The notes below the pieces were generated by a model. That model had not been told where the DNA came from, searched no databases, and saw nothing but the letters and a program-made list of their open reading frames with translations. This document shows, in pieces, positions 17,823 to 31,340 of a stretch of 64,000 bases of DNA. A program made the position numbers and the translations under genes. Position 1 is the first letter of the stretch, and every line of letters begins with the position of its first letter. Where the stretch lies: the NCBI RefSeq assembly GCF_016863255.1, contig NZ_BOON01000014.1:1-64000 (forward strand), written 5' to 3'. Source of the DNA: Planosporangium mesophilum (GTDB lineage: Bacteria; Actinomycetota; Actinomycetes; Mycobacteriales; Micromonosporaceae).

Positions 17823-18126
17823 CCGCTCCCGCTCCTTACATTCGCCGGTCACATCGTATTCGAGTATCGCCGCCGCCTCGAAAGGGCGAGCAGCGCCGCA
17901 GGCCCTGCCGGCCCACCATCGTGCCTCATCGGTGGGCGGATCCCCGGTGACCTGGGTCGCATACGGCCGTGTCGATCAGCAACCGCTCAGCGTACCTGGT
18001 GCAGCGCAAATTGATGTTTGCCGGGCATGGGGCCGGGTAGTGCATCGGCACAGGCAGTCGGCGTCGGCGCGGCCCAACGGGTCGCGCTAGCCGTAAGTGT
18101 GCACCGGGGTGGGGAGCGGGGGTCGG
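17823..18126. other. Divergent intergenic region, SpoIIE gene / heptose cluster
   Basis: 304 bp with no credible gene. It holds the ribosome site of the SpoIIE-type gene at its left end and a SigB/F-like promoter (listed separately) on the plus strand at 18016-18040. The rest is G-rich leader (18090-18126) before the GTG of the first glycan gene; I see no riboswitch or strong hairpin. Confidence 0.5.
18016..18040 (+). promoter_or_regulatory. Candidate SigB/SigF-type promoter of the heptose glycan cluster
   Basis: GTTT at 18016-18019, a 15-base spacer and GGGTAG at 18035-18040 match the GTTT-N15-17-GGGTAT form recognised by SigF/SigB-class sigma factors in actinobacteria. The start codon of the first glycan gene is about 87 bp downstream. 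The same layout occurs before the carbamoyltransferase gene at 29653-29677. Confidence 0.5.
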
Positions 18127-19707
18127 GTGTTGCAGGGCCAACGGTTCGCGGCAGCGCTCCTCGACCGGGACGGCACGCTCGTGGAGGACGTGCCCTACAA
18201 CGGTAATCCGGACCTGGTCCGGCCGGTACCCGGCGCCCGTGCCGCGCTCGACCGGCTGCGTGGGGCCGGGCTGCGGCTGGCGGTGGTCAGCAACCAGTCC
18301 GGCGTGGCCCGGGGCCTGCTGACGCACGAGCAGGTACGACGCGTCAACGAGCGCGTCGAGGAGCTGCTCGGTCCGTTCGACACCTGGCACTACTGTCCCC
18401 ACGGCCCCGACGACGCCTGCGACTGCCGCAAGCCGGCTGCGGGCATGGTACTCGGCGCGGCCCGGGCGCTCGGCGTACCGGTGGAGCGCTGCGTGATGAT
18501 CGGCGACATCGGCGCCGACGTGGCGGCCGGGCTGGCCGCCGGTGCCGCCGCGGTACTGGTACCCACGCAGGTCACCCGGGCCGAGGAGGTCGCCGCGGCT
18601 CCGGTCGTGGCCGCTGATCTCGCCGCCGCCGCGGACTGGATCCTCGGGACACCGCCGCAGCGCCCCAGAGTTCTCGTCGCCCGCACCGACTCCGCCGGCG
18701 ACGTCCTCCTCACCGGCCCCGCCATCCGAGCCGTGGCTGCCGGAGCAGCGCATACCACTCTGTTGTGCGGGCCGCGCGGACATGACGCGGCCCGTTTGCT
18801 TCCCGGCGTCGACGAGCTGATCGAGTGGCGGGTGCCGTGGATCGACCCGCAGCCGCCGCCGGTCGACGGTTCCGAGATCGACGCCCTGGTCAAAGACCTC
18901 GAGGCGCGGCAGTTCGACAAGGCCATCATCTTCACCTCGTTCCACCAGTCCCCGCTGCCACTCGCGCTGCTGCTGCGGCTGGCCGGCGTCCCGTACATCG
19001 CGGCGATCTCCGAGGACTACCCGGGATCGCTGCTCGACGTCCGGCACCGGGGCGTCGACGAGGACATCTCGGAGGTCGAGCGGGCGCTGTCGCTGACCGC
19101 CGCGGCGGGCTTCCCGCTGCCGGCCGGCGACGACGGGCGGCTGCGGGTACGCCTGCCGTTGCCGGCCGGCGACAGATCTTCGGCCGACGCCGTCGTCGCA
19201 GGGCTGCCGGACGGGTACGTCGTCGTGCACCCCGGTGCCAGCGTGGCGGCGCGGGCCTGCCCGCCCCGGCGGTGCCGGGAGTTCGTGGCCGGGCTGGTCG
19301 GGGCAGGGCACCCGGTCGTGGTCACCGGCGCGGAGAGCGAGCGCGAGCTGACCCGGTACGTGGCCGCCGACGAGGCGGTCGATCTGGGCGGGCGGACCAC
19401 GATGGCGCAGCTGGCGGCGGTCCTGGGCGGTGCCCGTTGCGCGGTGGTCGCCAACACCGGCCCGGCCCACCTGGCCGCGGCGGTCGGCACCCCGGTGGTG
19501 AGCCTGTTCGCGCCGACCGTGCCGTTCCAGCGGTGGCGGCCGTACGGCGTACCGGTCGTTCGGCTGGGCGATCCCGACGCGCCCTGCCGCGACACCCGCG
19601 CCGCGGTCTGCCCGGTACCCGAACACCCATGCCTGTCCACTGTGACCGCCGCTGACGTCGTCGGCGCGGTGGCGGCCCTGACCACCCGAAACGGCGGTGG
19701 AGTTTGA
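18127..19707 (+). CDS. GmhB-like phosphatase fused to GT9 heptosyltransferase
   Basis: 526 residues from GTG 18127. Residues about 5-170 form a HAD-IIIA domain of the D,D-heptose-1,7-bisphosphate 7-phosphatase (GmhB) type: ALLDRDGTLVEDVPYNGNP, VVSNQSGVARG, the zinc loop YCPHGPDDACDCRKPAAGM and MIGDIGADV. Residues about 180-520 form a GT9 (WaaF/ADP-heptose transferase) domain: VLVARTDSAGDVLLTGPAIR, YVVVHPGAS, NTGPAHLAAAVGTPVVSLFA and PFQRWRPYG. The fusion joins a step of nucleotide-heptose synthesis to heptose transfer. It is the first gene of a coupled operon; the next gene starts 4 bp inside it. The protein is cytoplasmic or peripheral to the membrane. Confidence 0.88.
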   Translation: MLQGQRFAAALLDRDGTLVEDVPYNGNPDLVRPVPGARAALDRLRGAGLRLAVVSNQSGVARGLLTHEQVRRVNERVEELLGPFDTWHYCPHGPDDACDCRKPAAGMVLGAARALGVPVERCVMIGDIGADVAAGLAAGAAAVLVPTQVTRAEEVAAAPVVAADLAAAADWILGTPPQRPRVLVARTDSAGDVLLTGPAIRAVAAGAAHTTLLCGPRGHDAARLLPGVDELIEWRVPWIDPQPPPVDGSEIDALVKDLEARQFDKAIIFTSFHQSPLPLALLLRLAGVPYIAAISEDYPGSLLDVRHRGVDEDISEVERALSLTAAAGFPLPAGDDGRLRVRLPLPAGDRSSADAVVAGLPDGYVVVHPGASVAARACPPRRCREFVAGLVGAGHPVVVTGAESERELTRYVAADEAVDLGGRTTMAQLAAVLGGARCAVVANTGPAHLAAAVGTPVVSLFAPTVPFQRWRPYGVPVVRLGDPDAPCRDTRAAVCPVPEHPCLSTVTAADVVGAVAALTTRNGGGV

Positions 19708-20672
19708 GGATCCTGCTCTGGCACGTGCACGGGGCCTGGACCACGGCATTCGTCCAGGGGGGACACGAGTACCTGGTGCCCACCACGCCGGACCGGGGGC
19801 CGTACGGGCTCGGTCGGGCCCGCACCTATCCGTGGCCGGACAGCGTCCGCGAGGTCGCGCCGGAGGCACTGCCGGACACCGACGTCGACCTGGTACTGCT
19901 CCAGCGCCCCGAGGAGTGGGAGCTGGCCGAGGGCTGGCTCGGCCGCCGGCTGGGGGTCGACGTGCCGGCCGTCTTCGTCGAGCACAACACGCCCAAGCAG
20001 GGCGACGTGCCGAACAGCCGGCACCCGATGGCCGACCGCGACGACGTGACACTCGTCCACGTCACCCACTACAACCGGCTGATCTGGGACAGCGGGGGCA
20101 CCCGCACCGAGGTCGTGGAGCACGGCATCCCCGACCCCGGCCCGATCTACACCGGCGACCTGCGGCGCATCGCGACCGCGATCAACGAGCCGATCCGCCG
20201 GTGGCGCGTGACCGGTACCGACCTGCTGCCGCGGTTCACCGCGGTCGCGCCGGTCGACGTGTACGGCATGAAGGTGACCGGTCTGGCAGACAAGCTCGGC
20301 CTTCCCGGCGAGCGGATGGAGGTCTTCGAGGATCCGCCGCAGGCGCGGATGCACGCCGCGATCGCCCGGCGCCGGGTGTACCTGCACCCGCACCGGTGGA
20401 CCTCGCTGGGGCTGTCCCTGCTGGAGGCCATGAGCTGCGGCGTGCCGGTGGTCGTCCTGGCTACGACCGAGTCGGTGATGGCCGTCCCGCCGGGCGCGGG
20501 CGTGCTGTCGACGAACGTGGACGAGCTGGTGGAAGGGGCCCGGTGGCTCGCGTCCGACGCCGAGGCCGCCCGCTGCTGCGGTGAGGCGGCCCGTCGCGCC
20601 GCACGGACCAGGTACGGACTGGGTCGGTTCCTTGCCGACTGGGACGCGCTGATGAAGGAGGTAACTTCGTGA
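19704..20672 (+). CDS. Glycosyltransferase, GT4-like
   Basis: 322 residues. The TTG start at 19704 overlaps the upstream stop by 4 bp. The C-terminal half holds the GT-B nucleotide-sugar site: RVYLHPHRWTSLGLSLLEAM then SCGVPVVVL, with the E-x7-E region reduced. The N-terminus MRILLWHVHGAWTTAFVQGG is the acceptor-side Rossmann opening. It probably adds one sugar to a heptose-containing glycan; donor and acceptor are unknown. It is coupled to the next gene by GTGA (20669-20672), so the two transferases are made in fixed ratio. Confidence 0.82.
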   Translation: MRILLWHVHGAWTTAFVQGGHEYLVPTTPDRGPYGLGRARTYPWPDSVREVAPEALPDTDVDLVLLQRPEEWELAEGWLGRRLGVDVPAVFVEHNTPKQGDVPNSRHPMADRDDVTLVHVTHYNRLIWDSGGTRTEVVEHGIPDPGPIYTGDLRRIATAINEPIRRWRVTGTDLLPRFTAVAPVDVYGMKVTGLADKLGLPGERMEVFEDPPQARMHAAIARRRVYLHPHRWTSLGLSLLEAMSCGVPVVVLATTESVMAVPPGAGVLSTNVDELVEGARWLASDAEAARCCGEAARRAARTRYGLGRFLADWDALMKEVTS

Positions 20673-21913
20673 CGCGACTGCGGATTGCGATGGTCTCCGA
20701 ACACGCCAGTCCGCTGGCTTCGATCGGAGGCGTCGACTCGGGTGGGCAGAACACCCACGTAGCCGAGTTGGCGGTCGCCCTCGCCCACCGTGGCCACGAG
20801 GTACGCGTATACACCCGCCGTGACGACCCCGACCTGCCCGACGTGGTGCCGTTCGCCGACGGGGTCCAGGTCGAGCACGTGCCGGCCGGTCCGCCGGAGT
20901 TCGTACCCAAGGACGATCTGCTGCCGTTCATGGGTGAGTTCGGGCGATGGATGGCCGGGCGCTGGGCATCGTCGGAGTTCGCCCCCGACGTCGTCCACGC
21001 GCACTTCTGGATGAGCGGCCTCGCGGCGCTCACCGCGACGTCGTCCAGCCGCATCCCGGTGGTGGTCACCTACCACGCGCTGGGCTCGATCAAGCGCCGT
21101 TACCAGGGTTCGAAGGACACCAGCCCGTACACCCGGCTGGGCCTGGAGCGGGAGCTCGGCCACCTCGCCGACCGGGTGATCGCCCAGTGCGCCGAGGAGG
21201 TCGAGGAGCTGGGCAAGATGGGGATCCCGCGCGGATCTATCCATGTCGTGCCCAGCGGCGTCAACACCGACCGGTTCGCCCCGAGCGGGCCCCGGGCCGA
21301 GCGCTCGCCGGGCGGGCGGCCCCGGATCCTGAGCGTGGGCCGGATGGTGGAGCGCAAGGGTTTCGGCGATCTGATCCAGGCGCTCTACCTCGTACCCGAG
21401 GCGGAGCTCGTCCTGCTCGGCGGGCCGCCACCCGACGAGCTGGACCGCGAGCCGATGGTCGGCCAACTGCGCCGCCTGGCGGACAAGCGCGGCGTCGCCG
21501 ACCGGGTGCGCATCGTCGGCTGCGTACCGAAGGAGGACATGCCCGCCTGGTACCGGTCGGCCGACGTGGTCGCCTGCGCACCCTGGTACGAGCCGTTCGG
21601 GCTGACCCCGCTGGAGGCGATGGCGTGCGGGGTCCCCGTCGTCGCGTACGCGGTCGGCGGGCTGGCCGAGAGCGTCATCGACGGCGTGACCGGCGTCCTG
21701 GTGCCGGGCCGCGACATCCGGCGGCTGGCGGCCGCGCTGCGCTCGGTGCTCAGCGACGACGTGCGGCGGATGAGCTACGCCAGCGCCGCCGTCGACCGGG
21801 TGCGGTCCCGGTACACCTGGGAACGCACGGCCGCCGACGTCGAGCGGGTGTACGCGTCGGTCACCGGTGAACCCATCATCGCCGGTGGAGCGCTCACGGA
21901 GGTTTCGTCATGA
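20669..21913 (+). CDS. GT4 family glycosyltransferase
   Basis: 414 residues. It starts MTRLRIAMVSEHASPLASIG, then GGVDSGGQNTHVAELAVALA, a glycine-rich acceptor loop like that of sucrose-synthase/MshA-type GT4 enzymes. The donor-site block is WYEPFGLTPLEAMACGVPVV (E-x7-E) followed by AYAVGGLAESVIDGVTG. A retaining transfer from a nucleotide sugar is expected. No membrane segment is visible. It is coupled by 4-bp overlaps to the previous gene and to a 27-codon mini-ORF after it. Confidence 0.88.
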   Translation: MTRLRIAMVSEHASPLASIGGVDSGGQNTHVAELAVALAHRGHEVRVYTRRDDPDLPDVVPFADGVQVEHVPAGPPEFVPKDDLLPFMGEFGRWMAGRWASSEFAPDVVHAHFWMSGLAALTATSSSRIPVVVTYHALGSIKRRYQGSKDTSPYTRLGLERELGHLADRVIAQCAEEVEELGKMGIPRGSIHVVPSGVNTDRFAPSGPRAERSPGGRPRILSVGRMVERKGFGDLIQALYLVPEAELVLLGGPPPDELDREPMVGQLRRLADKRGVADRVRIVGCVPKEDMPAWYRSADVVACAPWYEPFGLTPLEAMACGVPVVAYAVGGLAESVIDGVTGVLVPGRDIRRLAAALRSVLSDDVRRMSYASAAVDRVRSRYTWERTAADVERVYASVTGEPIIAGGALTEVSS

Positions 21914-21993
21914 CCGAGCGGAGCGAGATCGACCGGGAGCTCAGCGTGCTCCAGCGAAGCGAGACCGACGGGCCGTGTGAGGTGTCGCGATGA
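21910..21993 (+). CDS. 27-aa mini-ORF bridging two genes by ATGA overlaps (or REP-like element)
   Basis: ATG at 21910 overlaps the stop of the GT4 gene (ATGA) and its own TGA at 21991 overlaps the ATG of gmhA (ATGA). The peptide starts MTERSEIDRELSVLQRSE. The DNA carries two copies of a GAGCGRAGCGAG-type motif (21915-21926 and 21953-21963 region) that looks like the repetitive extragenic elements of Micromonosporaceae. It may therefore be a translated repeat that keeps ribosomes coupled across the gap rather than a functional peptide. Confidence 0.35.
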   Translation: MTERSEIDRELSVLQRSETDGPCEVSR

Positions 21994-22721
21994 CCTTGCT
22001 GTCCGGACGCGAGTCGCGCAGCGACCGCACCGACGACGCCGAGGCCAACGACGGCACATCGGGACTACCCGGTCTTGATCCGTTCGTCGAGCGGCGGCTC
22101 GACTTGGTGTGGCGCCGGTCCAGCGTGGACGCGAAGCTGGATCGGTTGGCCGACGCGCTGGAGCTGTTCCGGGCCGAGGCGCCGCGACTGGCCCGGTGGG
22201 GCCAGCACCTGGCCGAGGTACTGGTCTCCGGTGGGCGGCTGCTGGTGGCCGGCAACGGGGGCAGCGCCGCCGAGGCGCAGCACCTGAGCGCGGAGCTGGT
22301 CGGCAAGCTGCACGACGACCGGCCGGCCTACTCGGCGATCGCGCTGAACGCCGAGACCTCCAGCCTCACCGCGATCAGCAACGACTACGGGTACGAGCGG
22401 GTCTTCGCCCGGCAGGTGCAGGCCCACGGCCGGGAGGGCGACGTCCTCGTACTGATCTCCAGCAGCGGCCGGAGCCGGAACCTCATCGCCGCCGCCGAGA
22501 CAGCGCGCGACCTGGGCGTCACCTCCTGGGCGATGACCGGTCCCCTGCCCAACCCCCTCGGAACGTGCAGCGACGACGTGCTGGCCATCCAGTGCGACCC
22601 GCAGACCGCGCAGGAACTGCACCTGGTCGCGGTCCACGTGCTGTGCGAACAGGTCGAGGCCGCGCTGCCCGCTGCTGAGATACGCGCCGGACGGCGGGTC
22701 GGCAGGGGAGTGCGGCGGTGA
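21990..22721 (+). CDS. gmhA: Sedoheptulose-7-phosphate isomerase (GmhA-like SIS domain)
   Basis: 243 residues. The SIS-domain signature LVAGNGGSAAEAQHLSAELV (about residues 87-106), then SSLTAISNDYGYERVFARQV, LVLISSSGRSRNLIAAAE and a C-terminal AQELHLVAVHVLCEQVE match GmhA, which turns sedoheptulose 7-phosphate into D-glycero-D-manno-heptose 7-phosphate, the first step to activated heptoses. There is an extra N-terminus of about 40 residues compared with the enterobacterial enzyme (about 192). It is coupled by GTGA to the kinase gene that follows. Confidence 0.88.
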   Translation: MTLLSGRESRSDRTDDAEANDGTSGLPGLDPFVERRLDLVWRRSSVDAKLDRLADALELFRAEAPRLARWGQHLAEVLVSGGRLLVAGNGGSAAEAQHLSAELVGKLHDDRPAYSAIALNAETSSLTAISNDYGYERVFARQVQAHGREGDVLVLISSSGRSRNLIAAAETARDLGVTSWAMTGPLPNPLGTCSDDVLAIQCDPQTAQELHLVAVHVLCEQVEAALPAAEIRAGRRVGRGVRR

Positions 22722-24001
22722 GCCGGGCGCCCCTGGTGGTCGTCGGTGACGTACTGCTGGACCGGGAGGTGCTGGGCCGGGTCGAGCGGCTGTGCCCGGA
22801 GGCGCCGGTACCGGTGTTCGACGAGTCGGAGGTCCTCGACCGGCCCGGCGGCGCCGGGCTCGCCGCGCTCTTCACCGCCTCGGCGGCGGCGAGTGGACCG
22901 CCCGGTCGTACCCGTCCCGGCCGCCCTCCCCGCGAGGTGGTGCTCGTCGCCGCGGTCAGCGCCGACACGGCCGGCGACCGGATCCGGGAACTGTTGGCCC
23001 GCGCGGCGGTACGCCTGGTCGAGGTGCCGCTGCTCGGGCCGACCCCGGAGAAGATCCGGCTGCGCGCCGGCGGCCACCTGCTGATGCGGCTGGACCGGGG
23101 CAGCGGCCCGGCCGAGATCGCCGCCGCACCCGCCGCCGCGATCGAGGCGATCCGCGCGGCCGGCGCGATCCTGGTCAGCGACTACGGGCGCGGCATCTGC
23201 GCACATCCGCAGTTGCGGGCCGCGCTGACCGAGCGCGCCCAGTGCGTACCGCTGGTCTGGGACCCGCACCCGCGCGGCGGTCACCCGGTGCCCGCCACCC
23301 GGCTCGTGACCCCCAACCGGGCGGAGGCCAGCGGCTTCGTGTCGTCGAACCTGGGCGGCCCGCGCAGCGGGGAGTGGCCGCTGACCGCGGCGCTGCACCC
23401 GGCTGACGGGGTCGCCGTGCACGTGGGCGGCAACGGGCACGGCGCGAGCAACGGCGCGAGCGCGAGCAACGGTGCCGGCGCCGCCGGGAACGGCAACGGC
23501 CGGGCGGCGAACAACCGCGTCACTCCCAACCACGCCGTCCCCACCGGCGCCGTCGGGAACGGCAACGGCCGGGTGGCCGGCAACGGCGGCGCCGCCAAGG
23601 GCGACGCGACGACGAGCAGCAATGGCCACGCGACCGCGCACGCCGACGCCGCCACCGCCGACCTGGCGCAGGCGGCCGGCATGGCGGTGCGGCTGCGCCG
23701 GTACTGGGGAGCCAGCGCGGTCGTCGTCACGCTCGACGACCGCGGCGCGGTGATGTCCGACGGCGTGAACCCGCCGCTGCTGGTACCCACCCCGTTCAGC
23801 GCGCGGGGCGACAGTTGCGGTGCGGGCGACCGGTTCGCCAGCGCCGCGCTGGCCTCGCTGTCCGAGGGCTCGTCGATTCTGGAGGCGGTGACGACCGCCG
23901 TGACCGCGGCGACCGCGTACGTCGCCGCCGGGGGAGCGCTGTCCCTGTGTCCGGAGCTGCACGAGCGCGCCGACGACCCCGCGTCGGTAGTGATCATTTG
24001 A
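22718..24001 (+). CDS. HldE-like (PfkB) heptose-7-phosphate kinase with low-complexity insert
   Basis: 427 residues. The N-terminus VVVGDVLLDREVLGRVERL, then CPEAPVPVFDESEVLDRPGG matches the kinase half of HldE/RfaE. PfkB motif 2 is ARGDSCGAGDRFASAALA (catalytic Asp). It would phosphorylate C1 of heptose 7-phosphate, giving the substrate of the GmhB domain. The adenylyltransferase half of HldE is absent. Residues about 230-315 are an Asn/Gly/Ala-rich, probably disordered insert (GGNGHGASNGA; GNGNGRAANN; VGNGNGRVAGNGG) placed between the two halves of the kinase fold, which is unusual. It starts within gmhA by 4 bp; the SDR gene follows after 16 bp. Confidence 0.85.
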   Translation: MSRAPLVVVGDVLLDREVLGRVERLCPEAPVPVFDESEVLDRPGGAGLAALFTASAAASGPPGRTRPGRPPREVVLVAAVSADTAGDRIRELLARAAVRLVEVPLLGPTPEKIRLRAGGHLLMRLDRGSGPAEIAAAPAAAIEAIRAAGAILVSDYGRGICAHPQLRAALTERAQCVPLVWDPHPRGGHPVPATRLVTPNRAEASGFVSSNLGGPRSGEWPLTAALHPADGVAVHVGGNGHGASNGASASNGAGAAGNGNGRAANNRVTPNHAVPTGAVGNGNGRVAGNGGAAKGDATTSSNGHATAHADAATADLAQAAGMAVRLRRYWGASAVVVTLDDRGAVMSDGVNPPLLVPTPFSARGDSCGAGDRFASAALASLSEGSSILEAVTTAVTAATAYVAAGGALSLCPELHERADDPASVVII

Positions 24002-24017
24002 TCTTGAGGAGGAGTCA

Positions 24018-24698
24018 ATGCCCGGTGCGGTCATCGTCACGGGTGGTGCGAGCGGACTCGGTGCCGCGGTGGTCTCCGCGGTACGCGAGGCCGGCGGCAC
24101 CCCGTACGTGCTGGACCTGAAACCCCCCACCGTTGACGTGCCCTACGTGGCGGTCGACCTGTCCGACACGCGGGCCGCCGAGCGGGCCACCCGGGAGTTG
24201 ATCGAGCGGGCCGGCACGATCAAGGGCGTCGTCACCGCGGCCGGCATGGACATCCCGGCGCCGCTGACCGGTATTTCGGGAGAGGACTGGGAGCGGATCG
24301 TCGCGATCAACCTCTTCGGCACCGCGGCGGTGGTACGGGCCGCCGTACCCGCGCTGCGCGTCAGCCACGGCACGATCGTCACGGTCGCCTCCACGCTGGG
24401 CATCAAGGCCGTCGGCGACGCCACCGCGTACTGCGCGTCGAAGTTCGGCGTGGTCGGGTTCACCCGGGCCCTCGCCGCCGAGCTGGCCGGCGAGGTCGGG
24501 GTCACGCTGCTCATCCCGGGCGGCATGAAGACCAACTTCTTCGACGCCCGCGACGCCAAGTACAAGCCGGGGCCGGACGCGCCGCTCAACGACCCGGCCA
24601 ACACGGCCGCCGCGGTCATGTTCGCGCTGTCCCAGCCCCCCGGCAGCGCGGTACGGGAAATGATCGTCTGTTCCGAGGTGGAGTCGTCGTACCCGTGA
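24018..24698 (+). CDS. Short-chain dehydrogenase/reductase
   Basis: 226 residues, preceded by AGGAGG. NAD(P) motif VTGGASGLGAAVV (TGxxxGxG) at residues 7-19, VTAAGMDIP (NAG-like), catalytic Ser in TVASTLGIKA and YCASK (Y-x3-K) in DATAYCASKFGVVG. This is a classical SDR, not the extended HldD epimerase type. In this operon it may oxidise or reduce a sugar of the glycan, but the substrate is unknown. It overlaps the next GT9 gene by 4 bp (GTGA). Confidence 0.85.
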   Translation: MPGAVIVTGGASGLGAAVVSAVREAGGTPYVLDLKPPTVDVPYVAVDLSDTRAAERATRELIERAGTIKGVVTAAGMDIPAPLTGISGEDWERIVAINLFGTAAVVRAAVPALRVSHGTIVTVASTLGIKAVGDATAYCASKFGVVGFTRALAAELAGEVGVTLLIPGGMKTNFFDARDAKYKPGPDAPLNDPANTAAAVMFALSQPPGSAVREMIVCSEVESSYP

Positions 24699-25651
24699 GA
24701 CCCGTTCTGTTGGCTCTGCGGGCGCTGGGCATCGGCGACCTGGCCACCGCCGTACCCGCCCTGCGGGCCCTGCGGCGCGCGTTCCCGCGCCACGAGCTGG
24801 TCCTCGCCGCCCCGACCGGCCTCACCCCCCTGATCACGGCCACCGGCGCGGTCGACCGGGTCTTCGGTACCGGCTCCTTCGTCCGCGAGCCGATCGACTC
24901 CCTGTGCTGGTCGGGGCCGCGGCCGGACATCGCGGTCAACCTGCACGGCCGGGGGCCGGAGAGCCACCGCGCGCTGCTGGCCACCGATCCGGTCCGGTTC
25001 ATCGGGTACGCCCAGCCGGCGGCCGGCTGGCCGGACGGTCCGGAGTGGGTCGGCGAGGAGCACGAGCGGACCCGCTGGTGCCGGCTGCTGCACTGGCACG
25101 GTATCCCCGCCGACGACGAGGATCTGGGTATCGCGGCGCCGCCACCGGTACCGGGCCGGGCCGGCGCGGTCGTCGTGCACCCCGGGGCGAGCGGGCCGGA
25201 GCGGCGCTGGCCGGTCGACCGGTTCGCCGCCGTGGCCGGCCGGCTCGCGGCCGCGGGCCACCGGGTCCTGGTCTCCGGCTCGCCCGGTGAGGCCGCGGCC
25301 GCGCACGCGCTCGCCACGGCGGCCGGGCTGCCGCCGGACGCGGTCCTGGCCGGCCGCACCGACCTGGGCGAACTCTCCGCGCTCATCGCGCACGCCCGGC
25401 TGCTGATCTGCGGCGACACCGGGGTCGCGCACCTGGCGACCGGGTACGGCACCCGCTCGGTGGTGCTGTTCGGGCCGGTATCGCCGCGACTGTGGGGCCC
25501 GCCGGTCACCGGCCGGCACACCGTGCTGTGGCGCGGCCCGCGCGGGCTCGCCAGGATCGGCGTGGATGAGGTGTACGCGGCGGCCCGCCGCCAGCTCGAC
25601 GCGGACGCCACCGAGCGGGGTGGGGTATCCCATGCGGCTGCGACGCGCTGA
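24695..25651 (+). CDS. GT9 family (ADP-heptose-type) glycosyltransferase
   Basis: 318 residues. MRPVLLALRALGIGDLATAV is the GT9 N-terminal signature, followed by VVVHPGASGPERRWPVDRFA and ICGDTGVAHLATGYGTRSVV then LFGPVSPRLWGPP. It is the second GT9 enzyme of the cluster, so at least two heptose-like residues may be transferred. It is coupled to the SDR gene (4-bp overlap) and overlaps the start of the topoisomerase gene by 20 bp. It is cytoplasmic, with no membrane segment. Confidence 0.87.
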   Translation: MRPVLLALRALGIGDLATAVPALRALRRAFPRHELVLAAPTGLTPLITATGAVDRVFGTGSFVREPIDSLCWSGPRPDIAVNLHGRGPESHRALLATDPVRFIGYAQPAAGWPDGPEWVGEEHERTRWCRLLHWHGIPADDEDLGIAAPPPVPGRAGAVVVHPGASGPERRWPVDRFAAVAGRLAAAGHRVLVSGSPGEAAAAHALATAAGLPPDAVLAGRTDLGELSALIAHARLLICGDTGVAHLATGYGTRSVVLFGPVSPRLWGPPVTGRHTVLWRGPRGLARIGVDEVYAAARRQLDADATERGGVSHAAATR

Positions 25652-26681
25652 CCCGAACGGGCCGGGCCTCACCCGTCGCCGCAGTGGCAAGGGGTTCCGC
25701 TACCTCGACGCGGCCGGGCGGCCGGTGCGCGACCCGGACGAGGTGGCGCGCATCCGGGCCCTGGTCATCCCGCCGGCGTGGGAGGACGTCTGGATCTGCC
25801 CTGATCCGTGCGGGCACATCCAGGCCACCGGCGTCGACCAGGCGGGCCGGCGACAGTACCGCTACCACGACGTGTGGCGGGCCAAGCGCGACGCCGAGAA
25901 GTTCGAGCGCATCCTCGTCGTCGGCGAGCACCTGCCGCAGCTTCGTAAACGGGTCAGTGACGACCTGGCGGGCCGGGGGCTGGGGCGGGAGCGGGTGCTC
26001 GCGGTCGCGGTCCGGCTGCTCGACCAGGGGGTGTTCCGCATCGGCGGCGAGGCGTACGCGACCGCCGACAGCTCCTCCGGCGAGCCCACGTACGGGCTGG
26101 CCACACTGCAGCGCGACCACGTGAGCCTGCGTGGGGCCGTGATGGCGTTCCGGTACACCGCCAAGGGCGGCATCGAGCGGGCCCAGCGCCTCGTCGACGC
26201 CGAGGTGGCGCCGGTGGTACGGGCGCTGCTCAAGCGGCCGGACCCCAACCCGGAACTGCTGGGCTACCGGGTCGGCCGGCGCGGGTCGTGGCGCGACGTC
26301 CGCAGCGCCGACATCAACGATTACCTCAAGGAGGCGACCGACTGCGAGATCAGCGCCAAGGACTTCCGGACCTGGCACGCCACCGTCCTCGCGGCCGTGG
26401 CGTTGGCCCAGCCGGAGGCCGTCTCCGTGAACTCGGCGACCGCGCGCAGGAAAGTGGTGAGCCGGGCGTACCGGGAGGTGGCCGGGTACCTGGGCAACAC
26501 ACCGGCGGTGGCGAAGGCGTCGTACGTCAACCCGCGCGTCGTCGATCTGTACCACGCCGGCGAGACCATCGCGCCCGCACTGCGGGCTGAGTCCGACGAC
26601 GCCGACGACGCCGGTGACTTCGCCGTTCGCCGCCAGGCTGAGCAGGCCGTACTGGCGCTGCTGGGCGATGGTTCCGACTGA
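25632..26681 (+). CDS. DNA topoisomerase IB
   Basis: 349 residues from ATG 25632, inside the last 20 bp of the GT9 gene. Family blocks: GKGFRYLDAAGRPV, IPPAWEDVWICPDPCGHIQA then TGVDQAGRRQYRYH, DFRTWHATV (active-site His) and KASYVNPRVVDLY with the nucleophile Tyr. The poxvirus-like bacterial type IB enzymes relax supercoils of either sign without ATP. The length is normal for the family. A link to glycan synthesis is not expected; it probably shares the transcript only by position. The C-terminal tail is acidic (DDADDAGDF). Confidence 0.9.
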   Translation: MRLRRADPNGPGLTRRRSGKGFRYLDAAGRPVRDPDEVARIRALVIPPAWEDVWICPDPCGHIQATGVDQAGRRQYRYHDVWRAKRDAEKFERILVVGEHLPQLRKRVSDDLAGRGLGRERVLAVAVRLLDQGVFRIGGEAYATADSSSGEPTYGLATLQRDHVSLRGAVMAFRYTAKGGIERAQRLVDAEVAPVVRALLKRPDPNPELLGYRVGRRGSWRDVRSADINDYLKEATDCEISAKDFRTWHATVLAAVALAQPEAVSVNSATARRKVVSRAYREVAGYLGNTPAVAKASYVNPRVVDLYHAGETIAPALRAESDDADDAGDFAVRRQAEQAVLALLGDGSD

Positions 26682-26989
26682 CGCTCCGCTACGAAACCCT
26701 TCCACGGGCCGTGCCCGGGAGGTAACGTCGACGCAGGCTCATATCATCCGAACGGGCGACTTCTGGTCACCCTGTGACGATGGCAAGCTGACCAATCGTC
26801 GTCCAGAAGAGGGCGGCGGCGGCCAGCGGGACGTGATGTCCACCGACGGTGATGGGTTCAAGCAACGGGCCCCTGTCGTAACGGTTCACAACTCTGGTCG
26901 AAGGGCCTGTCCGCCTGTGGGCGGACGGCTGCGCCGCGGATCCGCGGATCGGTTCCCACCGCTTCGACCTCGCCGGACAGGGGACGACC
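26682..26989 (+). other. Leader region of the sigma factor gene
   Basis: 308 bp with no credible gene. It carries two symmetric elements at 26909-26947 (listed separately). No GTTT/GGGTA-type promoter is seen here, unlike at the other sites in the locus, so this sigma gene is probably read from a different promoter or from the cluster transcript. Confidence 0.4.
26909..26947. promoter_or_regulatory. Hairpin plus 14-bp palindrome upstream of the sigma factor gene
   Basis: GTCCGCC (26909-26915), loop TGTG, GGCGGAC (26920-26926) form a 7-bp stem. Seven bases on, CCGCGGATCCGCGG (26934-26947) is a perfect palindrome. They end 42 bp before the start codon, where an operator or a leader hairpin would act. 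No ribosome site is masked by either. Confidence 0.4.
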
Positions 26990-27874
26990 ATGACCACGAC
27001 CACCACCCCCGACCTCCGTGGGCACGACACGCTCTCCGAGGATCTCGCTGTCGCGACGGTGTCGGATGCTGTCGCTGTCGCGACGGTGTCCGCCGGTACC
27101 GACGGCGCGACCCGTCCCGGCAGCGAAGCCGAGTCCGTGGCTCAGTCGCTGCTGGCGCTGCTGGCCGACCTACCGGCCGACAGCCCCGACCACGGGCGTG
27201 TGCGGGACCGGATCATCGAGCACTACCTGCCGCTGGCCACGTACCTGGCCCGGCGCTTCCGCAACCGCGGCGAGCAGCTGGACGACCTGGTCCAGGTGGC
27301 CAACCTCGGCCTGATCAAGTCGGTCGACGGCTACGACGCCGGTCACGGGACCGCGTTCTCCAGCTACGCGATTCCGATGATCCTCGGCGAGCTCAAGCGG
27401 CACTTCCGGGACAAGGGCTGGGACATCCGGGTACCCCGGCGGATCCAGGAACTCCGCTTGGAGATCATCCGGGCGACCGGCGACCTGGCGCAGCGGCTCG
27501 GCCGCGCGCCGACAGTGGCTGACCTGGCCGAGCACCTCGGCGTACGCGAGGAGGACATCGTCGAGGGGCTCGAGTCCGCCCACGCGTACCGCGCGCTGTC
27601 GTTGCAGTCGCCGGTCCCCGGCGACGAGTCGAGCACCGAACTGGCCGACCTGATGGGTACGGTCGACCGCCACCTGGAGCAGGTCGAGGACCGGGAGGCG
27701 CTCCGCCCGCTGATCGCCCGGCTGCCGCAGCGGGAGCAGCGGATCATCGCGCTGCGGTTCTTCGGCAACATGACCCAGTCGCAGATCGCCGCCGATCTCG
27801 GCATCTCGCAGATGCACGTGTCCCGGCTGCTCTCCCACGCGCTCGGCGTACTGCGCCGGGGCCTGCTCTCCTAG
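26990..27874 (+). CDS. SigB/SigF/SigG-type RNA polymerase sigma factor
   Basis: 294 residues. Region 2 is IEHYLPLATYLARRFRNRGE, then QLDDLVQVANLGLIKSVDGY and GTAFSSYAIPMILGELKRHF; region 3 RDKGWDIRVPRRIQELRLEI; region 4 LPQREQRIIALRFFGNMTQS, then QIAADLGISQMHVSRLLSHA. This is the alternative sigma class used in stress and differentiation and usually controlled by anti-sigma/anti-anti-sigma partner switching. No anti-sigma gene is adjacent, so control would be in trans; the SpoIIE-type phosphatase at 15297-17822 is a candidate partner. An N-terminal extension of about 50 residues is Thr/Ala/Val-rich with an internal VAVATVS repeat. Its stop overlaps the convergent phosphoesterase gene by 4 bp. 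Confidence 0.92.
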   Translation: MTTTTTPDLRGHDTLSEDLAVATVSDAVAVATVSAGTDGATRPGSEAESVAQSLLALLADLPADSPDHGRVRDRIIEHYLPLATYLARRFRNRGEQLDDLVQVANLGLIKSVDGYDAGHGTAFSSYAIPMILGELKRHFRDKGWDIRVPRRIQELRLEIIRATGDLAQRLGRAPTVADLAEHLGVREEDIVEGLESAHAYRALSLQSPVPGDESSTELADLMGTVDRHLEQVEDREALRPLIARLPQREQRIIALRFFGNMTQSQIAADLGISQMHVSRLLSHALGVLRRGLLS

Positions 27875-28668
27875 ACGCCGGCAGGTTCCCCGGCCTTCTC
27901 CGTCTCCTCGGCCCTGGCGGGCACCGCGACCTGGTACACGCTGTACGCCTGCTTGATCACCGGGTGCGCGACGTTCCGGACGTGCACCCCGCCCGGGGTC
28001 ATCCCGCGCTCGGTACCGGCGTGCGCGTGCCCGTGTACGGCGAGCGCCGGGCACACCGCGTCGATCGCCTCGCCCAGCAGGTACGAGCCCAGGAAGGGGT
28101 AGATCTCCAGCGGCTCGCCCAGCAGCGTGTCCGGCGTCGGCGCGTAGTGCGTCAGCGCGATCCGCATGTCGCAGTCCAACCCGGCCAGCGCGGCGCCGAA
28201 CTCCTGGGAGACGACGCGGGTGTGCCGGATGAACGCCTTCATCTCCGGCTCGCCGAACTCGCTGGCGCACCGGCCGGCGAACCCGCCGCCGAAGCCCTTC
28301 GCGCCCGCGATCCCCAGCCGGATCCCGAAGCAGTCGAGGACCACGCCGGTGCGTTCCAGGACGATGATGCCGGCATCGTCGAGGATCTTGGTGACCTCCT
28401 CCTGGGCGTCGGAGTGGTAGTCGTGGTTGCCGAGCACCGCGACCACGGGTACGGGGAGCCCGCCGAACTCGGTCGCGACACAGCGCGCCTCGTCGCCGGT
28501 ACCGTGCCGGGTCAGATCGCCGGCGAGCAGCAGCACGTCGGCCTTTTCGCCGATGCGCTCCAGCGCCGGTCGGTACCGACCCAGCACGTCCTCGTCGATG
28601 TGCACATCGCCGACCGCTGCCACCCGAACACAGTTGGGCGGCCGGTTGGAATTTTGGGCCGTGCTCAC
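27871..28668 (-). CDS. Calcineurin-like metallophosphoesterase
   Basis: 265 residues. Metal-binding motifs in order: VGDVHIDED (residues about 19-27), LLLAGDLTRHG, VLGNHDYHSD, ALTHYAPTPD and ALAVHGHAHAGTE. The enzyme would hydrolyse a phosphoester with two metal ions; the substrate is unknown. No signal peptide. It is the third gene of a coupled operon (nucleotidyltransferase, BON-like protein, phosphoesterase), each joined by a 4-bp overlap. A nucleotidyltransferase paired with a phosphoesterase could make and remove the same modification, but this is inference. Confidence 0.88.
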   Translation of the reverse strand: MSTAQNSNRPPNCVRVAAVGDVHIDEDVLGRYRPALERIGEKADVLLLAGDLTRHGTGDEARCVATEFGGLPVPVVAVLGNHDYHSDAQEEVTKILDDAGIIVLERTGVVLDCFGIRLGIAGAKGFGGGFAGRCASEFGEPEMKAFIRHTRVVSQEFGAALAGLDCDMRIALTHYAPTPDTLLGEPLEIYPFLGSYLLGEAIDAVCPALAVHGHAHAGTERGMTPGGVHVRNVAHPVIKQAYSVYQVAVPARAEETEKAGEPAGV

Positions 28669-28913
28669 ACTTCCTCCACCTCTTCCGGTTCGTGTACCCG
28701 GGTGACGCCGATGTCGGACTTCACCGTCAGGTCGGGGAACCGCTCGGCCACCACCTGCTCGATGCGCTCCTTGCGCTTCTGGCTCTCCACCTCGCCGGAC
28801 AGTGCGAACGTGCGCTCCTCCAGGTGGCTCACCCGGATCCCCTGCTCCGACACGCGCTCGTCCTCGGTGAGCACGCGCTGCAGTTCGCTCTCCTTGTACT
28901 GGTCCGGGTTCAT
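28665..28913 (-). CDS. Small BON-like domain protein
   Basis: 82 residues. VSHLEERTFALSGEVESQKR then RIEQVVAERFPDLTVKSDIG follows the alpha-beta BON pattern (strand, gly-turn, amphipathic helix, strand); the C-terminus is acidic (EPEEVEEV). There is no signal peptide, so unlike OsmY-type BON proteins it is cytoplasmic. It may tether the operon's two enzymes or bind lipid or nucleic acid; this is unknown. Both ends overlap neighbouring genes by 4 bp, which argues for a fixed ratio with them. Confidence 0.65.
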   Translation of the reverse strand: MNPDQYKESELQRVLTEDERVSEQGIRVSHLEERTFALSGEVESQKRKERIEQVVAERFPDLTVKSDIGVTRVHEPEEVEEV

Positions 28914-29521
28914 CCGGACACCTCCTTGAGCTGTGCCCGGCGCTCGGTGGCGGAGCTGATCCCCGCCAGCGAGACCACGTTGAGGCGGTCCAGCAGCACC
29001 ATGAACGCCTGGGCGTACGGGGAGTGCGCCGTCTCGCGCTCGACCCGTGCCCAGTCGATCTGCTCGCGCATGGACTGGGCCACGGGTAGCGCCTTCGACA
29101 GGTCGCAGTAGTGCGGTCCCATCGAGAGCAGCTTGTGGATCATGAGTTCGGTGGCCGAGAGGACGGGCATATGGCAGGCGTTGACCGACAGCACGTCGGT
29201 GTCGGCGAGCGTCTCGTCGGTGACCGGGCGCTGCACCGGGGAGAAGATCAGATCAACGAGGCGGTCCTCGTCGTAGACCTTGACCAGCCAACCCTCGGGG
29301 GGTATTTCGGCGCGGAAGCCGACTTCGACCAGCCCCGTGAGTATCCGGTCCGCGTCCTCCTCCTTGATCAGGAAGTCCACGTCATGGTCGCAACCGCCTC
29401 CGCCGCGGGCATACACGGCGAAGCTACCTGCCAGTGCGAACGGGACGCCCATCTGCTTGAGGTGGTACGCCACCCGCTTCAACGTCTGGATGAGCGGCTG
29501 TTGATCCTCAGCTAGAGGCAT
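28910..29521 (-). CDS. Nucleotidyltransferase-fold protein
   Basis: 203 residues. GVPFALAGSFAVYARGGGGC, then DHDVDFLIKEEDADRIL holds the GS-x(n)-DxD signature of the polymerase-beta nucleotidyltransferase superfamily (Gly-Ser near residues 32-33; Asp-x-Asp near 46-48), close to the AbiEii/MNT group. The later part (VYDEDRLVDLIFSP, with a third acidic residue) and ATELMIHKLLSMGPHYCD fit the same family. It would transfer a nucleotide to a protein, RNA or small molecule. It is the first gene of a three-gene coupled operon and sits behind a GGGTAT promoter-like element. It is not paired with a typical antitoxin. Confidence 0.75.
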   Translation of the reverse strand: MPLAEDQQPLIQTLKRVAYHLKQMGVPFALAGSFAVYARGGGGCDHDVDFLIKEEDADRILTGLVEVGFRAEIPPEGWLVKVYDEDRLVDLIFSPVQRPVTDETLADTDVLSVNACHMPVLSATELMIHKLLSMGPHYCDLSKALPVAQSMREQIDWARVERETAHSPYAQAFMVLLDRLNVVSLAGISSATERRAQLKEVSG

Positions 29522-29581
29522 CGCAGGCTCCTAGTGGTCAGGTCGGCCGCTCATTCGGGGCCGACCGGGACCCTCGTGCAG

Positions 29582-29607
29582 ATACCCGCAGGCTCACGGT
29601 CTCACAC
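29582..29607 (-). promoter_or_regulatory. Possible SigB/F-type promoter of the nucleotidyltransferase operon
   Basis: On the minus strand GGGTAT (29587 down to 29582) is preceded, 16 bases upstream, by GTGT (29607-29604), one base from the GTTT of the class consensus. Transcription would start about 55 bp before the ATG at 29521. Weaker than the two other sites. Confidence 0.3.
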
Positions 29608-29652
29608 GCATCGGTGCCGCAGTTAGCCGCTGACCAGGTAGATATCTCCGCT

Positions 29653-29677
29653 GTTTGATCACCTTGGCGAGGGGTAC
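29653..29677 (+). promoter_or_regulatory. Candidate SigB/SigF-type promoter of the carbamoyltransferase gene
   Basis: GTTT at 29653-29656, a 15-base spacer and GGGTAC at 29672-29677. The ATG at 29687 is only 9 bp after the -10, so the mRNA would be leaderless or nearly so, which is common in actinomycetes and fits the absence of a ribosome site here. Confidence 0.5.
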
Positions 29678-29686
29678 GACGCGCCC

Positions 29687-31339
29687 ATGCGGGTCCTGGG
29701 CATCAATGCCGTCTTCCACGATCCCTCGGCGGCGCTCGTGGTCGACGGGCGGGTCGTGGCGGCGGCCGAGGAGGAGCGGTTCAGCCGGCGCAAGCACGGC
29801 AAGCGACCGGTGCCCTTCTCCGCCTGGGAGCTGCCCGAGCGGGCGGCGGCCTGGTGCCTGGAGAGCGCGGGCCTCGACGCCACGCAGGTGGACGCGGTCG
29901 CGTACTCGTTCGACCCGGCGCTGTGCCGCCCCGCCGACTCGCTCGGCCTGGACGACCCGTGGGACTGGCTGCGCCAGGAGTACGCGAAGCGCGCCCCCGG
30001 ATTCCTCGCCGCGGCGCTGCCCGGGCTGGACCCGTCCCAGGTACGGTTCGTCGCCCACCACGCCGCACACGCCGCCTCGGCCGCCTTGGCCGCGCCGGCC
30101 GAGGCCGGCCACGGCGACTGCGCGGTGCTGGTACTCGACGGCCGCGGCGAGGTCGCCAGCCACCTGGCCGGCCAGTACCGCGACGGCGTGCTCAACCCGC
30201 TGTACGCGCAGTCGCTGCCGCACTCGCTCGGCCTGATGTACGAGGACCTGACCGCCCACCTCGGCTTCCTGCGCTCGTCCGACGAGTACAAGGTGATGGC
30301 GCTGGCCAGCTACGGCACGCCGCGGTTCCTGCCGGAGCTGCGGGAGCTGGTACGGGCGACCGGCGACGGCGGCTTCGAGGTCGCCAAGATCGATTGGGCG
30401 ACGCTGACCAAGCCGGTCGCGCCGGGCGCTTCACTCGGCACCGACCAGGCGGACCTGGCCTGCAGCGTGCAGACCCGGCTGGAGGAGGTGATCCTCGACC
30501 TGGCCCGCTGGCTGTACGACGCGACCGGCGGGCAGAAGCACATCGCCCTGGCCGGCGGTACCGCGCTCAACTGCGTGGCCAACGCCCGGCTCGCCGCGGA
30601 GGGGCCGTTCGAGACGGTCTGGGTGCAGCCGGCCGCCGGCGACTCCGGTACCGCGCTCGGGGCCGCCCTGCACGTGGCCCGCGGTCTCGGTGACCGCACC
30701 GCCCCGATGCCCGGCGCCGACCTCGGCCGCGGCTTCACCGACGACGAGATCGAGGCCGAGCTGCGCCGCGCCCGGCTGCCGTTCACCCGGCCGGCGTCGA
30801 TCGCCGAGGAGGCCGCCGAGGTGCTCGCCGCCAACGGCATCGTGGCCTGGTTCCAGGGGCGCAGCGAGTACGGCCCGCGCGCGCTCGGGCACCGCTCGCT
30901 GCTGGCCAACCCGACCGACCCGGACAACACCGAGCGGCTCAACCTGGTCAAGGGGCGCGAGCAGTTCCGGCCGGTTGCGCCGATGGTGCTCGCCGAGCGC
31001 GCCGGCGAGGTCTTCGACGGACTCCTGGACAGCCCGTACATGCTCTTCGTGCAGCAGGTGAAGCCGGAGTGGCGGGAGAAGATCCCGGCCGTCACCCACG
31101 TCGACGGCACCGCGCGCATCCAGTCCGTCAGCGACGCGCGCGAGCCCCTGGTCGCGGAGCTGCTGCGGGCCTTCGAGCGCCGCACCGGCGTACCGGTCGT
31201 CGTCAACACCTCGCTCAACACGGCCGGCCGGCCGATGGTCGACTCGCCGTTCGACGTCCTCGAACTCTTCGGCTCGGCCCCCATCGACGCGCTGGCGATC
31301 GGACCCTTCGCGGTCCGGCGCGCCGAGAGTTGGCGCTGA
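29687..31339 (+). CDS. Carbamoyltransferase (NodU/CmcH family)
   Basis: 550 residues, normal for the family. The N-terminal Kae1-like ATPase part begins MRVLGINAVFHDPSAALVVD and EEERFSRRKHGK and includes FVAHHAAHAASAAL and the LALAGGTALNCVANARL block. The C-terminal carbamoyltransferase domain has WFQGRSEYGPRALGHRSLLA and FRPVAPMVL. The family uses carbamoyl phosphate and ATP to carbamoylate a hydroxyl group of a sugar or antibiotic. With a GT2 gene 1 bp downstream and a heptose glycan cluster nearby, decoration of a surface sugar is a fair inference. No membrane segment. Confidence 0.9.
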   Translation: MRVLGINAVFHDPSAALVVDGRVVAAAEEERFSRRKHGKRPVPFSAWELPERAAAWCLESAGLDATQVDAVAYSFDPALCRPADSLGLDDPWDWLRQEYAKRAPGFLAAALPGLDPSQVRFVAHHAAHAASAALAAPAEAGHGDCAVLVLDGRGEVASHLAGQYRDGVLNPLYAQSLPHSLGLMYEDLTAHLGFLRSSDEYKVMALASYGTPRFLPELRELVRATGDGGFEVAKIDWATLTKPVAPGASLGTDQADLACSVQTRLEEVILDLARWLYDATGGQKHIALAGGTALNCVANARLAAEGPFETVWVQPAAGDSGTALGAALHVARGLGDRTAPMPGADLGRGFTDDEIEAELRRARLPFTRPASIAEEAAEVLAANGIVAWFQGRSEYGPRALGHRSLLANPTDPDNTERLNLVKGREQFRPVAPMVLAERAGEVFDGLLDSPYMLFVQQVKPEWREKIPAVTHVDGTARIQSVSDAREPLVAELLRAFERRTGVPVVVNTSLNTAGRPMVDSPFDVLELFGSAPIDALAIGPFAVRRAESWR

Positions 31340-31340
31340 G

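What the first reader, a model, noticed from the sequence alone, without database searches (positions are those of the whole stretch)
18016..29677. Shared SigB/SigF-type promoter signature around a SigB/F-type sigma gene
GTTT-N15-GGGTAG (18016-18040) precedes the heptose glycan cluster, GTTT-N15-GGGTAC (29653-29677) sits 9 bp before the carbamoyltransferase start, and GGGTAT with a near -35 (29607-29582, minus strand) precedes the nucleotidyltransferase operon. The sigma factor class known to read such promoters is encoded at 26990-27874 between them, and a SpoIIE-type phosphatase, the usual regulator of such sigmas, flanks the cluster. This suggests one sigma-controlled surface-modification regulon.
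Basis: partly seen in the sequence, partly recalled or inferred. Interest (0 to 1): 0.7.

Follow-up and report, generated by a model that had tools for sequence, protein, structure and literature searches.

The report
Stress-sigma promoters driving heptose glycan cluster
Three short promoter signals in this soil-bacterium genome are real and conserved across much of its family, so an uncharacterised sugar-coat gene cluster, together with a stress-type regulator gene inside it, appears to be switched on as part of the cell's general stress and dormancy programme.

Summary
GTTT-N15-GGGTAG (18016-18040), GTTT-N15-GGGTAC (29653-29677) and, on the minus strand, GTGT-N16-GGGTAT (29607-29582) are present as described, and each recurs at the orthologous gene in other Micromonosporaceae. 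The carbamoyltransferase box sits 8-11 nt before the start codon in 20 of 26 family loci (window included) and 0 of 64 loci of other families. Shine-Dalgarno-like sequences: 3 of 26 against 62 of 64. So its mRNA is probably leaderless.

The motif is not private to surface modification: the genome holds 73 GTTT-N14-17-GGGTA sites. Of the 71 outside the window, 54 are promoter-like, against 4 of 20 spacing-control sites; genes behind them include catalase, hemerythrins, DUF2267 and STAS proteins: a SigB-type stress regulon. The nearby sigma gene is one of four close paralogues. In the genus it ends the heptose operon (gap 22, 191 or 308 bp), so feedback is possible. Elsewhere linked sigmas are of other subclades or absent. 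SpoIIE linkage was seen only in the genus.

A new member of a known promoter/regulon kind; which sigma acts is unproven.

The parts
18016..18040 (+). SigB/F-type promoter GTTT-N15-GGGTAG of the heptose-glycan operon
   Evidence: A GTTT-GGGTAG box is kept in the 3 other genomes of the genus (L088, L089, L090) and a GTTT-GGG[TA]A box in 18 of 20 family loci (window included) where the gene does not follow CTase-GT2 on the same strand. G follows GGGTA in 36 of 71 sites.
18127..19707 (+). Fused GmhB-like HAD phosphatase and GT9 heptosyltransferase; first gene of the operon (start uncertain, 18097-18130)
   Evidence: Pfam, NCBIfam (below NCBIfam equivalog cutoffs)
19725..25651 (+). Rest of heptose-glycan operon: two GT1/GT4-type glycosyltransferases, SIS isomerase (GmhA-like), PfkB/HldE-like kinase, SDR, GT9
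   Evidence: Pfam; HldE domain I match below cutoff; gaps -4 to 76 bp
25632..26681 (+). Topoisomerase IB, overlapping the last glycosyltransferase gene
   Evidence: Pfam; gap -20 bp
26990..27874 (+). SigB/SigF/SigG-family sigma factor, last gene on the operon's strand
   Evidence: Same position in G001 (P. thailandense) and G002; gap after topoisomerase 308 bp here, 191 and 22 bp there; no terminator-like site in 26600-27100.
27871..29521 (-). Operon: nucleotidyltransferase (NTP_transf_5; 28910-29521), 82-aa protein (28665-28913), calcineurin-like phosphoesterase (27871-28668)
   Evidence: Pfam; three-gene order also in L187 and L135
29582..29607 (-). SigB/F-type promoter GTGT-N16-GGGTAT of the nucleotidyltransferase operon
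   Evidence: GTGT-N16-GGGTA at 7 of 7 Micromonosporaceae orthologues read, window included (L185, L186, L188, L187, L106 by eye; L135 by pattern; the start codon is uncertain in L187 and L106); not seen at 2 Streptomyces loci
29653..29677 (+). SigB/F-type promoter GTTT-N15-GGGTAC, 9 nt before the start codon; predicted leaderless mRNA
   Evidence: Box at this position in 20 of 26 family loci (window included), 0 of 64 others; Shine-Dalgarno-like sequence in 3 of 26 against 62 of 64
29687..31339 (+). NodU/CmcH-type O-carbamoyltransferase
   Evidence: Pfam Carbam_trans_N and _C; NodU model matched below cutoff
31341..32333 (+). GT2 glycosyltransferase, 1 bp after the carbamoyltransferase
   Evidence: Pfam, gap
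15297..17852 (-). ANTAR-GAF-PAS-SpoIIE phosphatase, divergent from the heptose operon; membership in the system uncertain
   Evidence: Pfam; among the 20 regions a divergent match only in L185 and L186

Best explanation
The three sites are working promoters for RNA polymerase carrying a SigB/SigF-family sigma factor. They place an uncharacterised surface-glycan system (heptose precursor synthesis and transfer, O-carbamoylation, plus a nucleotidyltransferase/phosphoesterase operon) inside the genome's general stress/dormancy regulon. The carbamoyltransferase transcript begins at or within a few nucleotides of its ATG, so it is translated as a leaderless mRNA. In Planosporangium a SigB/F-type sigma gene is the last gene of the heptose operon, so transcription from its promoter can also raise sigma level. 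Shown here: sequence, conservation, genome-wide enrichment, regulon content, gene order. Inferred: that the sites are transcribed, the transcription start positions, which of the four sigma paralogues acts, read-through into the sigma gene, and that the glycan is exported.
For: Conservation at fixed position across a family that rearranges the genes: carbamoyltransferase box in 20 of 26 family loci (window included), 2 of 3 unplaced MAGs, 0 of 64 others; chance about 0.0015 per locus. HAD-GT9 box in 24 of 37 family loci: 18 of 20 where the gene does not follow CTase-GT2, 6 of 17 where it does. Upstream of other cluster genes the same scan found: GT1a 0 of 36, GT4 1 of 30, SIS 0 of 2, SDR 0 of 18, GT9 0 of 22, GT2 0 of 25 family rows. 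Nucleotidyltransferase site 7 of 7. Genome-wide: 54 of 71 promoter-like against 4 of 20 control sites; downstream genes include many typical SigB-type stress genes. Published: sigma-SsdA of Actinoplanes missouriensis, same family, has the motif GnTT-n14-CGGGTA, shown in vitro on two templates, with catalase, luciferase-like monooxygenase and alcohol dehydrogenase genes among 17 probable targets (PMC10733313, passages); sigma-H of Actinoplanes SE50/110 has a GTTT/GGGTA motif (PMC11205660, passages).
Against: Six of 26 family carbamoyltransferase loci lack a strict box; four of these keep a GGGTA or GGGAA element at the same place with an off-consensus -35, one has GCGGTA, one has nothing near. 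Two of 20 HAD-GT9 loci that would need their own promoter show none. The motif is degenerate and 26 spacing-control hits show a sizeable background. The box is not strictly family-bound: 1 of 16 HAD-GT9 loci of other families (L085, Nonomuraea) has it, and the motif exceeds its reversed control in some other families' genomes too. No SigB-type box was found upstream of the window's sigma gene. The window sigma's clade is genus-restricted in the tree. Nine of 55 downstream proteins have no Pfam match and several are not obviously stress genes. Gene calls came from a home-made caller that recovered 15 of 15 of its own training genes, which is not an independent check.
Confidence: 0.87

Rival explanations
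1. The sigma gene at 26990-27874 is the dedicated regulator of a private surface-modification regulon: it alone reads the three sites and few others.
For: Gene order fixed in the three genomes of the genus where it could be seen (window, L185, L186); 22-bp gap to the operon in G002. SigB/F-type genes lie in or within about 10 kb of the cluster also in L018, L187, L200/L022, L203/L023 and L015 and L135. In 18 regions outside the genus 3 have one, 0.38 expected, P about 0.007; this is rough, and I had already seen coordinates for G061 and G024 when I chose the regions.
Against: The same motif is in front of about 54 other genes, many of stress type. Four paralogues share the recognition segments. 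Linked sigmas in other genera are from other subclades. In 15 of 18 regions outside the genus no such gene was found, yet 11 of those 15 keep a strict box at CTase or HAD-GT9 (not L189, L195, L197, L198).
Confidence: 0.2
2. Another paralogue, most likely the C5 sigma with its STAS-HATPase partner gene (or the C1 or C12 sigma), reads the sites; the window sigma is a recent duplicate of the C1 type with a minor or different role.
For: The C5 sigma has an N-terminal STAS domain and an upstream STAS-HATPase gene with a GGTTA...GGGGTAG box about 170 nt in front, resembling the A. missouriensis SipA/sigma-SsdA pair (PMC10733313). The C1-type group (support 93/73) spans more genera than the window's clade. 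Family members without a linked sigma mostly keep the promoters.
Against: The domain order differs from sigma-SsdA, whose antagonist domain is C-terminal as printed. No sequence feature distinguishes which paralogue binds.
Confidence: 0.45
3. The three sites are chance matches in GC-rich DNA.
For: GGGTA[CT] alone is three times over-represented in the window, and spacing controls still give 26 genome-wide hits.
Against: Position-locked recurrence in other genera, absence at 64 other-family carbamoyltransferase starts, 54 of 71 against 4 of 20 promoter-like placement.
Confidence: 0.02

Closest known systems
sigma-SsdA / SipA regulon of Actinoplanes missouriensis (PMC10733313; passages read)
   Same: Same family; promoter motif GnTT-n14-CGGGTA, shown in vitro for two templates; target genes overlap in kind (catalase, luciferase-like monooxygenase, alcohol dehydrogenase, response regulator); STAS-HATPase partner resembles the C5 neighbour here.
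   Different: The words heptose and glycosyltransferase have no occurrence in that paper's main text. Sigma-SsdA has a C-terminal antagonist domain as printed; the window sigma has none and C5 has an N-terminal one.
SigB-homologue regulons of Streptomyces coelicolor (PMC8346170; passages read) and sigma-H of Actinoplanes sp. SE50/110 (PMC11205660; passages read)
   Same: GTTT-like -35, GGGTAN -10 including GGGTAG, 12-15 nt between hexamers; several paralogues per genome; cross-recognition reported for S. coelicolor.
   Different: No heptose or carbamoyltransferase operon in the passages read of PMC8346170; 'heptos' and 'carbamoyl' do not occur in the main text of PMC11205660. The other-family carbamoyltransferase loci here, Streptomyces among them, have no such box (0 of 64) and mostly a Shine-Dalgarno context (62 of 64).
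Sporangium polysaccharide clusters imp, wps-1, gsf of A. missouriensis (PMC13390465; abstract and passages read)
   Same: Surface or matrix glycan clusters of a sporangium-forming member of the same family.
   Different: Wzx/Wzy or GtrA systems; 'heptos' and 'carbamoyl' have no occurrence in the main text.

Membership tests
SigB/SigF-type promoter class of actinomycetes | -35 GTTT-like, -10 GGG[T/A]A, spacing about 12-15 between hexamers (14-17 after GTTT) | tested here: met
   the third site has GTGT, as SCO5749p has in the S. coelicolor table (PMC8346170)
SigB/SigF-type promoter class of actinomycetes | Position upstream of genes, more than chance genome-wide | tested here: met
   54 of 71 against 4 of 20 controls; 73 against 26 and 7
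SigB/SigF-type promoter class of actinomycetes | Transcription start shortly after the -10, dependent on such a sigma | not testable with these tools
   Needs RNA
SigB/SigF/SigG sigma subfamily (26990-27874) | Passes the subfamily model and has regions 2, 3, 4 | tested here: met
   TIGR02980 291.7 bits, cutoff 234.35; Pfam regions
SigF model NF005514 | Score above the curated cutoff | tested here: not met
   309.4 bits against 372; so not named SigF here
sigma-SsdA orthologue | Antagonist (STAS) domain fused to the sigma, SipA-type anti-sigma gene nearby | tested here: not met
   Window sigma has no STAS match and none of the flanking genes scanned matched an RsbW/HATPase domain; the C5 paralogue has both parts but with the STAS N-terminal
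General stress regulon | Downstream genes for oxidative/osmotic stress and partner-switch proteins | tested here: met
   Catalase, hemerythrin, DUF2267, STAS, mechanosensitive channel and others; 9 of 55 without Pfam match
Leaderless mRNA (carbamoyltransferase) | Start codon at or next to the transcription start, no Shine-Dalgarno sequence | tested here: inconclusive
   Promoter to ATG distance 9 nt; SD-like 3 of 26 in the family; start site not mapped

The most novel reading that the evidence does not exclude
A SigB/F-type sigma gene that ends the very operon its promoter class drives forms a positive-feedback switch for an unknown carbamoylated heptose glycan of dormant or stressed Micromonosporaceae. 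Sigma genes of several subclades have been recruited into or beside this cluster repeatedly, and a leaderless carbamoyltransferase mRNA lets the coat be made when ordinary initiation is reduced.
Probability: 0.25. Interest if true: 0.6.

Novelty: new member of a known kind. Interest (0 to 1): 0.45.

Why it matters
It gives a regulatory context to a heptose/carbamoyltransferase cluster found in 15 (carbamoyltransferase) to 27 (HAD-GT9) of 44 sampled genera of the family, for which none of the seven literature searches here listed a paper that by title or abstract start characterises it. It predicts when the glycan is made (stress, stationary phase, sporangium maturation) and supplies a cross-genus set of position-locked SigB-type promoters, including a leaderless class, that can be tested directly in Actinoplanes or Planosporangium.

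Tried and rejected
Chance origin of the motif: rejected by spacing, reversed-pattern, placement and cross-family controls.

Autoregulation by a SigB-type box directly upstream of the window's sigma gene: no such box found. The 308-bp gap has no terminator-like site and no unusual RNA structure (z about 0); no Rfam family reached its gathering score in 17000-36000.

SpoIIE phosphatase as a conserved partner: among the 20 regions a match (E up to 1e-10) was found next to the cluster only in L185 and L186; some regions hold little sequence upstream of HAD-GT9. It stays possible but weak.

Orthology of linked sigmas: the tree puts the linked sigmas of L203/L200, L187/L015 and L018 outside the window's clade; L200 and L015 have long branches, so their exact places are unsure. 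L135, found later to be linked, falls in yet another clade of the same tree. For most genomes only the best-scoring sigma locus is in the tree.

Counting caveats. One search kept the best 80 of 401 relatives, and the 64 'other family' starts come from these. Two family rows of the 26 (L135, L186) were added by hand because they turned out to hold the gene; without them the count is 18 of 24. The HAD-GT9 count of 27 of 43 holds duplicates; the 37-row set is used instead. L089 (same genus) keeps the box but is not in that set. The 20 regions are from 20 of the 36 genomes with a HAD-GT9 hit, chosen by me. Control sites: 20 of 26 were fetched. Pfam was run on 55 downstream proteins (54 promoter-like sites plus 1 site that lies inside a called gene).

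Literature: in searches no listed paper ties a heptose/carbamoyltransferase cluster to a SigB-type sigma in actinomycetes, judged by titles and abstract starts; this covers only that open library.
Full report
Observation. The three sites are in the sequence at the stated coordinates. The window lies in an unnamed 6.62-Mb genome (G000). Its genus includes G001, whose carbamoyltransferase coordinates coincide with those of Planosporangium thailandense TBRC 5610, so the window is taken to be from a Planosporangium species, family Micromonosporaceae.

Chance. GGGTA[CT] is over-represented by itself (111 against 38 expected in the window), so the -10 alone carries no weight. The two-part motif does: GTTT-N14-17-GGGTA has 73 places in the genome, 26 when the halves are set N20-23 apart, and 7 when the pattern is reversed. 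I fetched about 3 kb around all 71 places outside the window and around 20 of the 26 control places. With a simple codon-usage gene caller, 54 of 71 motif places are not inside a called gene and lie within 250 bp upstream of one on the same strand, against 4 of 20 controls; 6 of 71 and 13 of 20 are inside called genes; 11 of 71 and 3 of 20 are outside genes without a called start in range. The caller recovered 15 of 15 window genes, but these were its training set. Spacers of the 54 are 15 (20), 16 (14), 14 (13), 17 (7). All 21 genomes of a relatives scan hold the motif; in all 13 Micromonosporaceae among them it exceeds the reversed control, for example 92 against 11 in G001. It does so in some other families as well (G025 33 against 12, G031 68 against 27), but not in all (G026 6 against 8).

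Conservation at the three genes. Carbamoyltransferase: among 93 distinct starts, a box ends 6-13 nt before the start codon in 20 of 26 Micromonosporaceae (window included), 2 of 3 unplaced MAGs and 0 of 64 others (Streptomyces, Geodermatophilaceae and others); chance is about 0.0015 per locus. Of the six family misses, two keep GGGTAC/GGGTAT and two GGGAA at the same place with a changed -35, one has GCGGTA, one has nothing near. A Shine-Dalgarno-like tetramer lies in the 4-16 nt upstream in 3 of 26 family starts and 62 of 64 others; the start is ATG in 24 of 26 and 18 of 64. Together these make a leaderless transcript likely in the family. In the genome-wide set the distance from -10 to the called start is also two-peaked: nine of 54 at 9-12 nt, none at 13-19, the rest at 20 or more.

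HAD-GT9, first gene of the heptose operon: 24 of 37 distinct family loci (window included) have GTTT-N13-18-GGG[TA]A between -250 and +60. Split by gene order it is 18 of 20 where the gene does not directly follow CTase-GT2 on the same strand, and 6 of 17 where it does, so the promoter tends to be absent where the operon can be fed by the carbamoyltransferase promoter. The other members of the genus keep it (L088, L089, L090). In other families 1 of 16 rows has it (L085, Nonomuraea). Other cluster genes scanned the same way show 0-1 hits each; PfkB was not scanned.

Nucleotidyltransferase: GTGT-N16-GGGTA[T/C/A] stands upstream in the seven Micromonosporaceae orthologues read (window, L185, L186, L188, L187, L106, L135) and was not seen in two Streptomyces loci. 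In L187 and L106 the protein match begins at residue 10, so the distance to the start is uncertain there. In L135 the site persists although a sigma gene lies between the nucleotidyltransferase and the carbamoyltransferase.

What the regulon is. Pfam on the 55 downstream proteins gives catalase, three hemerythrin-domain proteins, four DUF2267 proteins (one behind the site that lies inside a called gene), three STAS proteins, two alcohol dehydrogenases, aldehyde dehydrogenase, two luciferase-like monooxygenases, two mechanosensitive-channel-type proteins, cytochrome bd subunit I, ChaB, DksA/TraR, two erythromycin-esterase-like proteins, glucose-6-phosphate isomerase, a GAF-ANTAR protein, a LuxR-type response regulator, a second carbamoyltransferase (L225) and a GT2 (L252). 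Others are not obviously stress genes (RecQ-like helicase, MFS transporter, alpha-amylase, thiamine-diphosphate enzymes, protein kinase, gamma-glutamyltranspeptidase and more), and nine have no match. The whole is what I expect of a SigB-type stress regulon (from general knowledge) and overlaps in kind with the sigma-SsdA targets of A. missouriensis (PMC10733313, passages). So the surface-glycan operons are one module of a wider regulon.

The sigma factor. The gene at 26990-27874 passes TIGR02980 but not the SigF or SigB models. Three close paralogues exist (C1, C12, C5). The four proteins share region 2.4 (ELKRHFRD/EIKRHFRD ... RVPRR) and the region 4 helix (ISQMHVSRLL) almost unchanged (region names recalled). 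The genus has the gene at the end of the heptose operon: gap 22 bp in G002, 191 bp in P. thailandense, 308 bp here, with no terminator-like site in the window gap. Read-through and feedback are therefore possible, and most likely in G002. Outside the genus, 3 of 18 fetched regions carry a SigB/F-type gene near the cluster, where 0.38 would be expected (rough, and I had seen two of these coordinates before choosing the regions). Further linked cases are L018 and L015 and L135. The tree puts the linked rows in several clades, and the window's clade holds three genomes of the genus. Fifteen of 18 regions have no such gene, though 11 of the 15 keep a strict box at the carbamoyltransferase or HAD-GT9. 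The simplest reading is that any of several paralogues can serve. C5, with an N-terminal STAS domain, a STAS-HATPase neighbour and a GGTTA...GGGGTAG box in front of that neighbour, is a good candidate for the master sigma.

What the operons make. The HAD and PfkB proteins match GmhB- and HldE-type models below their equivalog cutoffs. With the SIS protein and two GT9 proteins this points to a heptose-type sugar and its transfer, but the product is unknown. The carbamoyltransferase and GT2 form a second operon. I did not identify export genes, so 'surface' remains an inference.

Judgement. The promoters are real with high probability, and the cluster belongs to a SigB-type regulon. The class of promoter and of regulon is known, in this family too; what is added is the target, its conservation, its likely leaderless form and the sigma gene's place in the operon.

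Noticed in passing
window 51935-51910 (minus): GTTA-N16-GGGTAT about 8 nt before the called start of an alpha/beta hydrolase gene (50930-51901, minus): another possible leaderless SigB-type promoter.
   Followed up: partly
L004 985-2136 and 212-886 (G000 contig C5): A SigB/F-type sigma with an N-terminal STAS domain, next to a STAS-HATPase gene with a SigB-type box in front; the published sigma-SsdA has its antagonist domain C-terminal as printed.
   Followed up: partly
L185 upstream of 531; L007: In P. thailandense the carbamoyltransferase sits on another contig with its box kept, and the old place seems to hold a remnant of its 5' end beside the nucleotidyltransferase promoter (by eye).
   Followed up: no
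upstream of carbamoyltransferase starts in L010, L012, L015, L151, L156, L159, L161: A recurring GAGAAGTCGATGATC-like stretch just upstream of the -35 in several loci, and GATCAT-containing stretches in Geodermatophilaceae loci; possibly a regulator site (by eye).
   Followed up: no
L225 1563-3023 (G000 contig C10): A second NodU-type carbamoyltransferase gene with its own GTTT-N-GGGTAG box 36 nt upstream.
   Followed up: no
G000 contig C7: Six of the 71 motif places lie on one contig of 96 kb, which may be a cluster of stress genes.
   Followed up: no
window 25632-26681: A topoisomerase IB gene overlaps the end of the heptose operon; a relative lies after the last GT9 gene in 11 of the 20 regions.
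   Followed up: no
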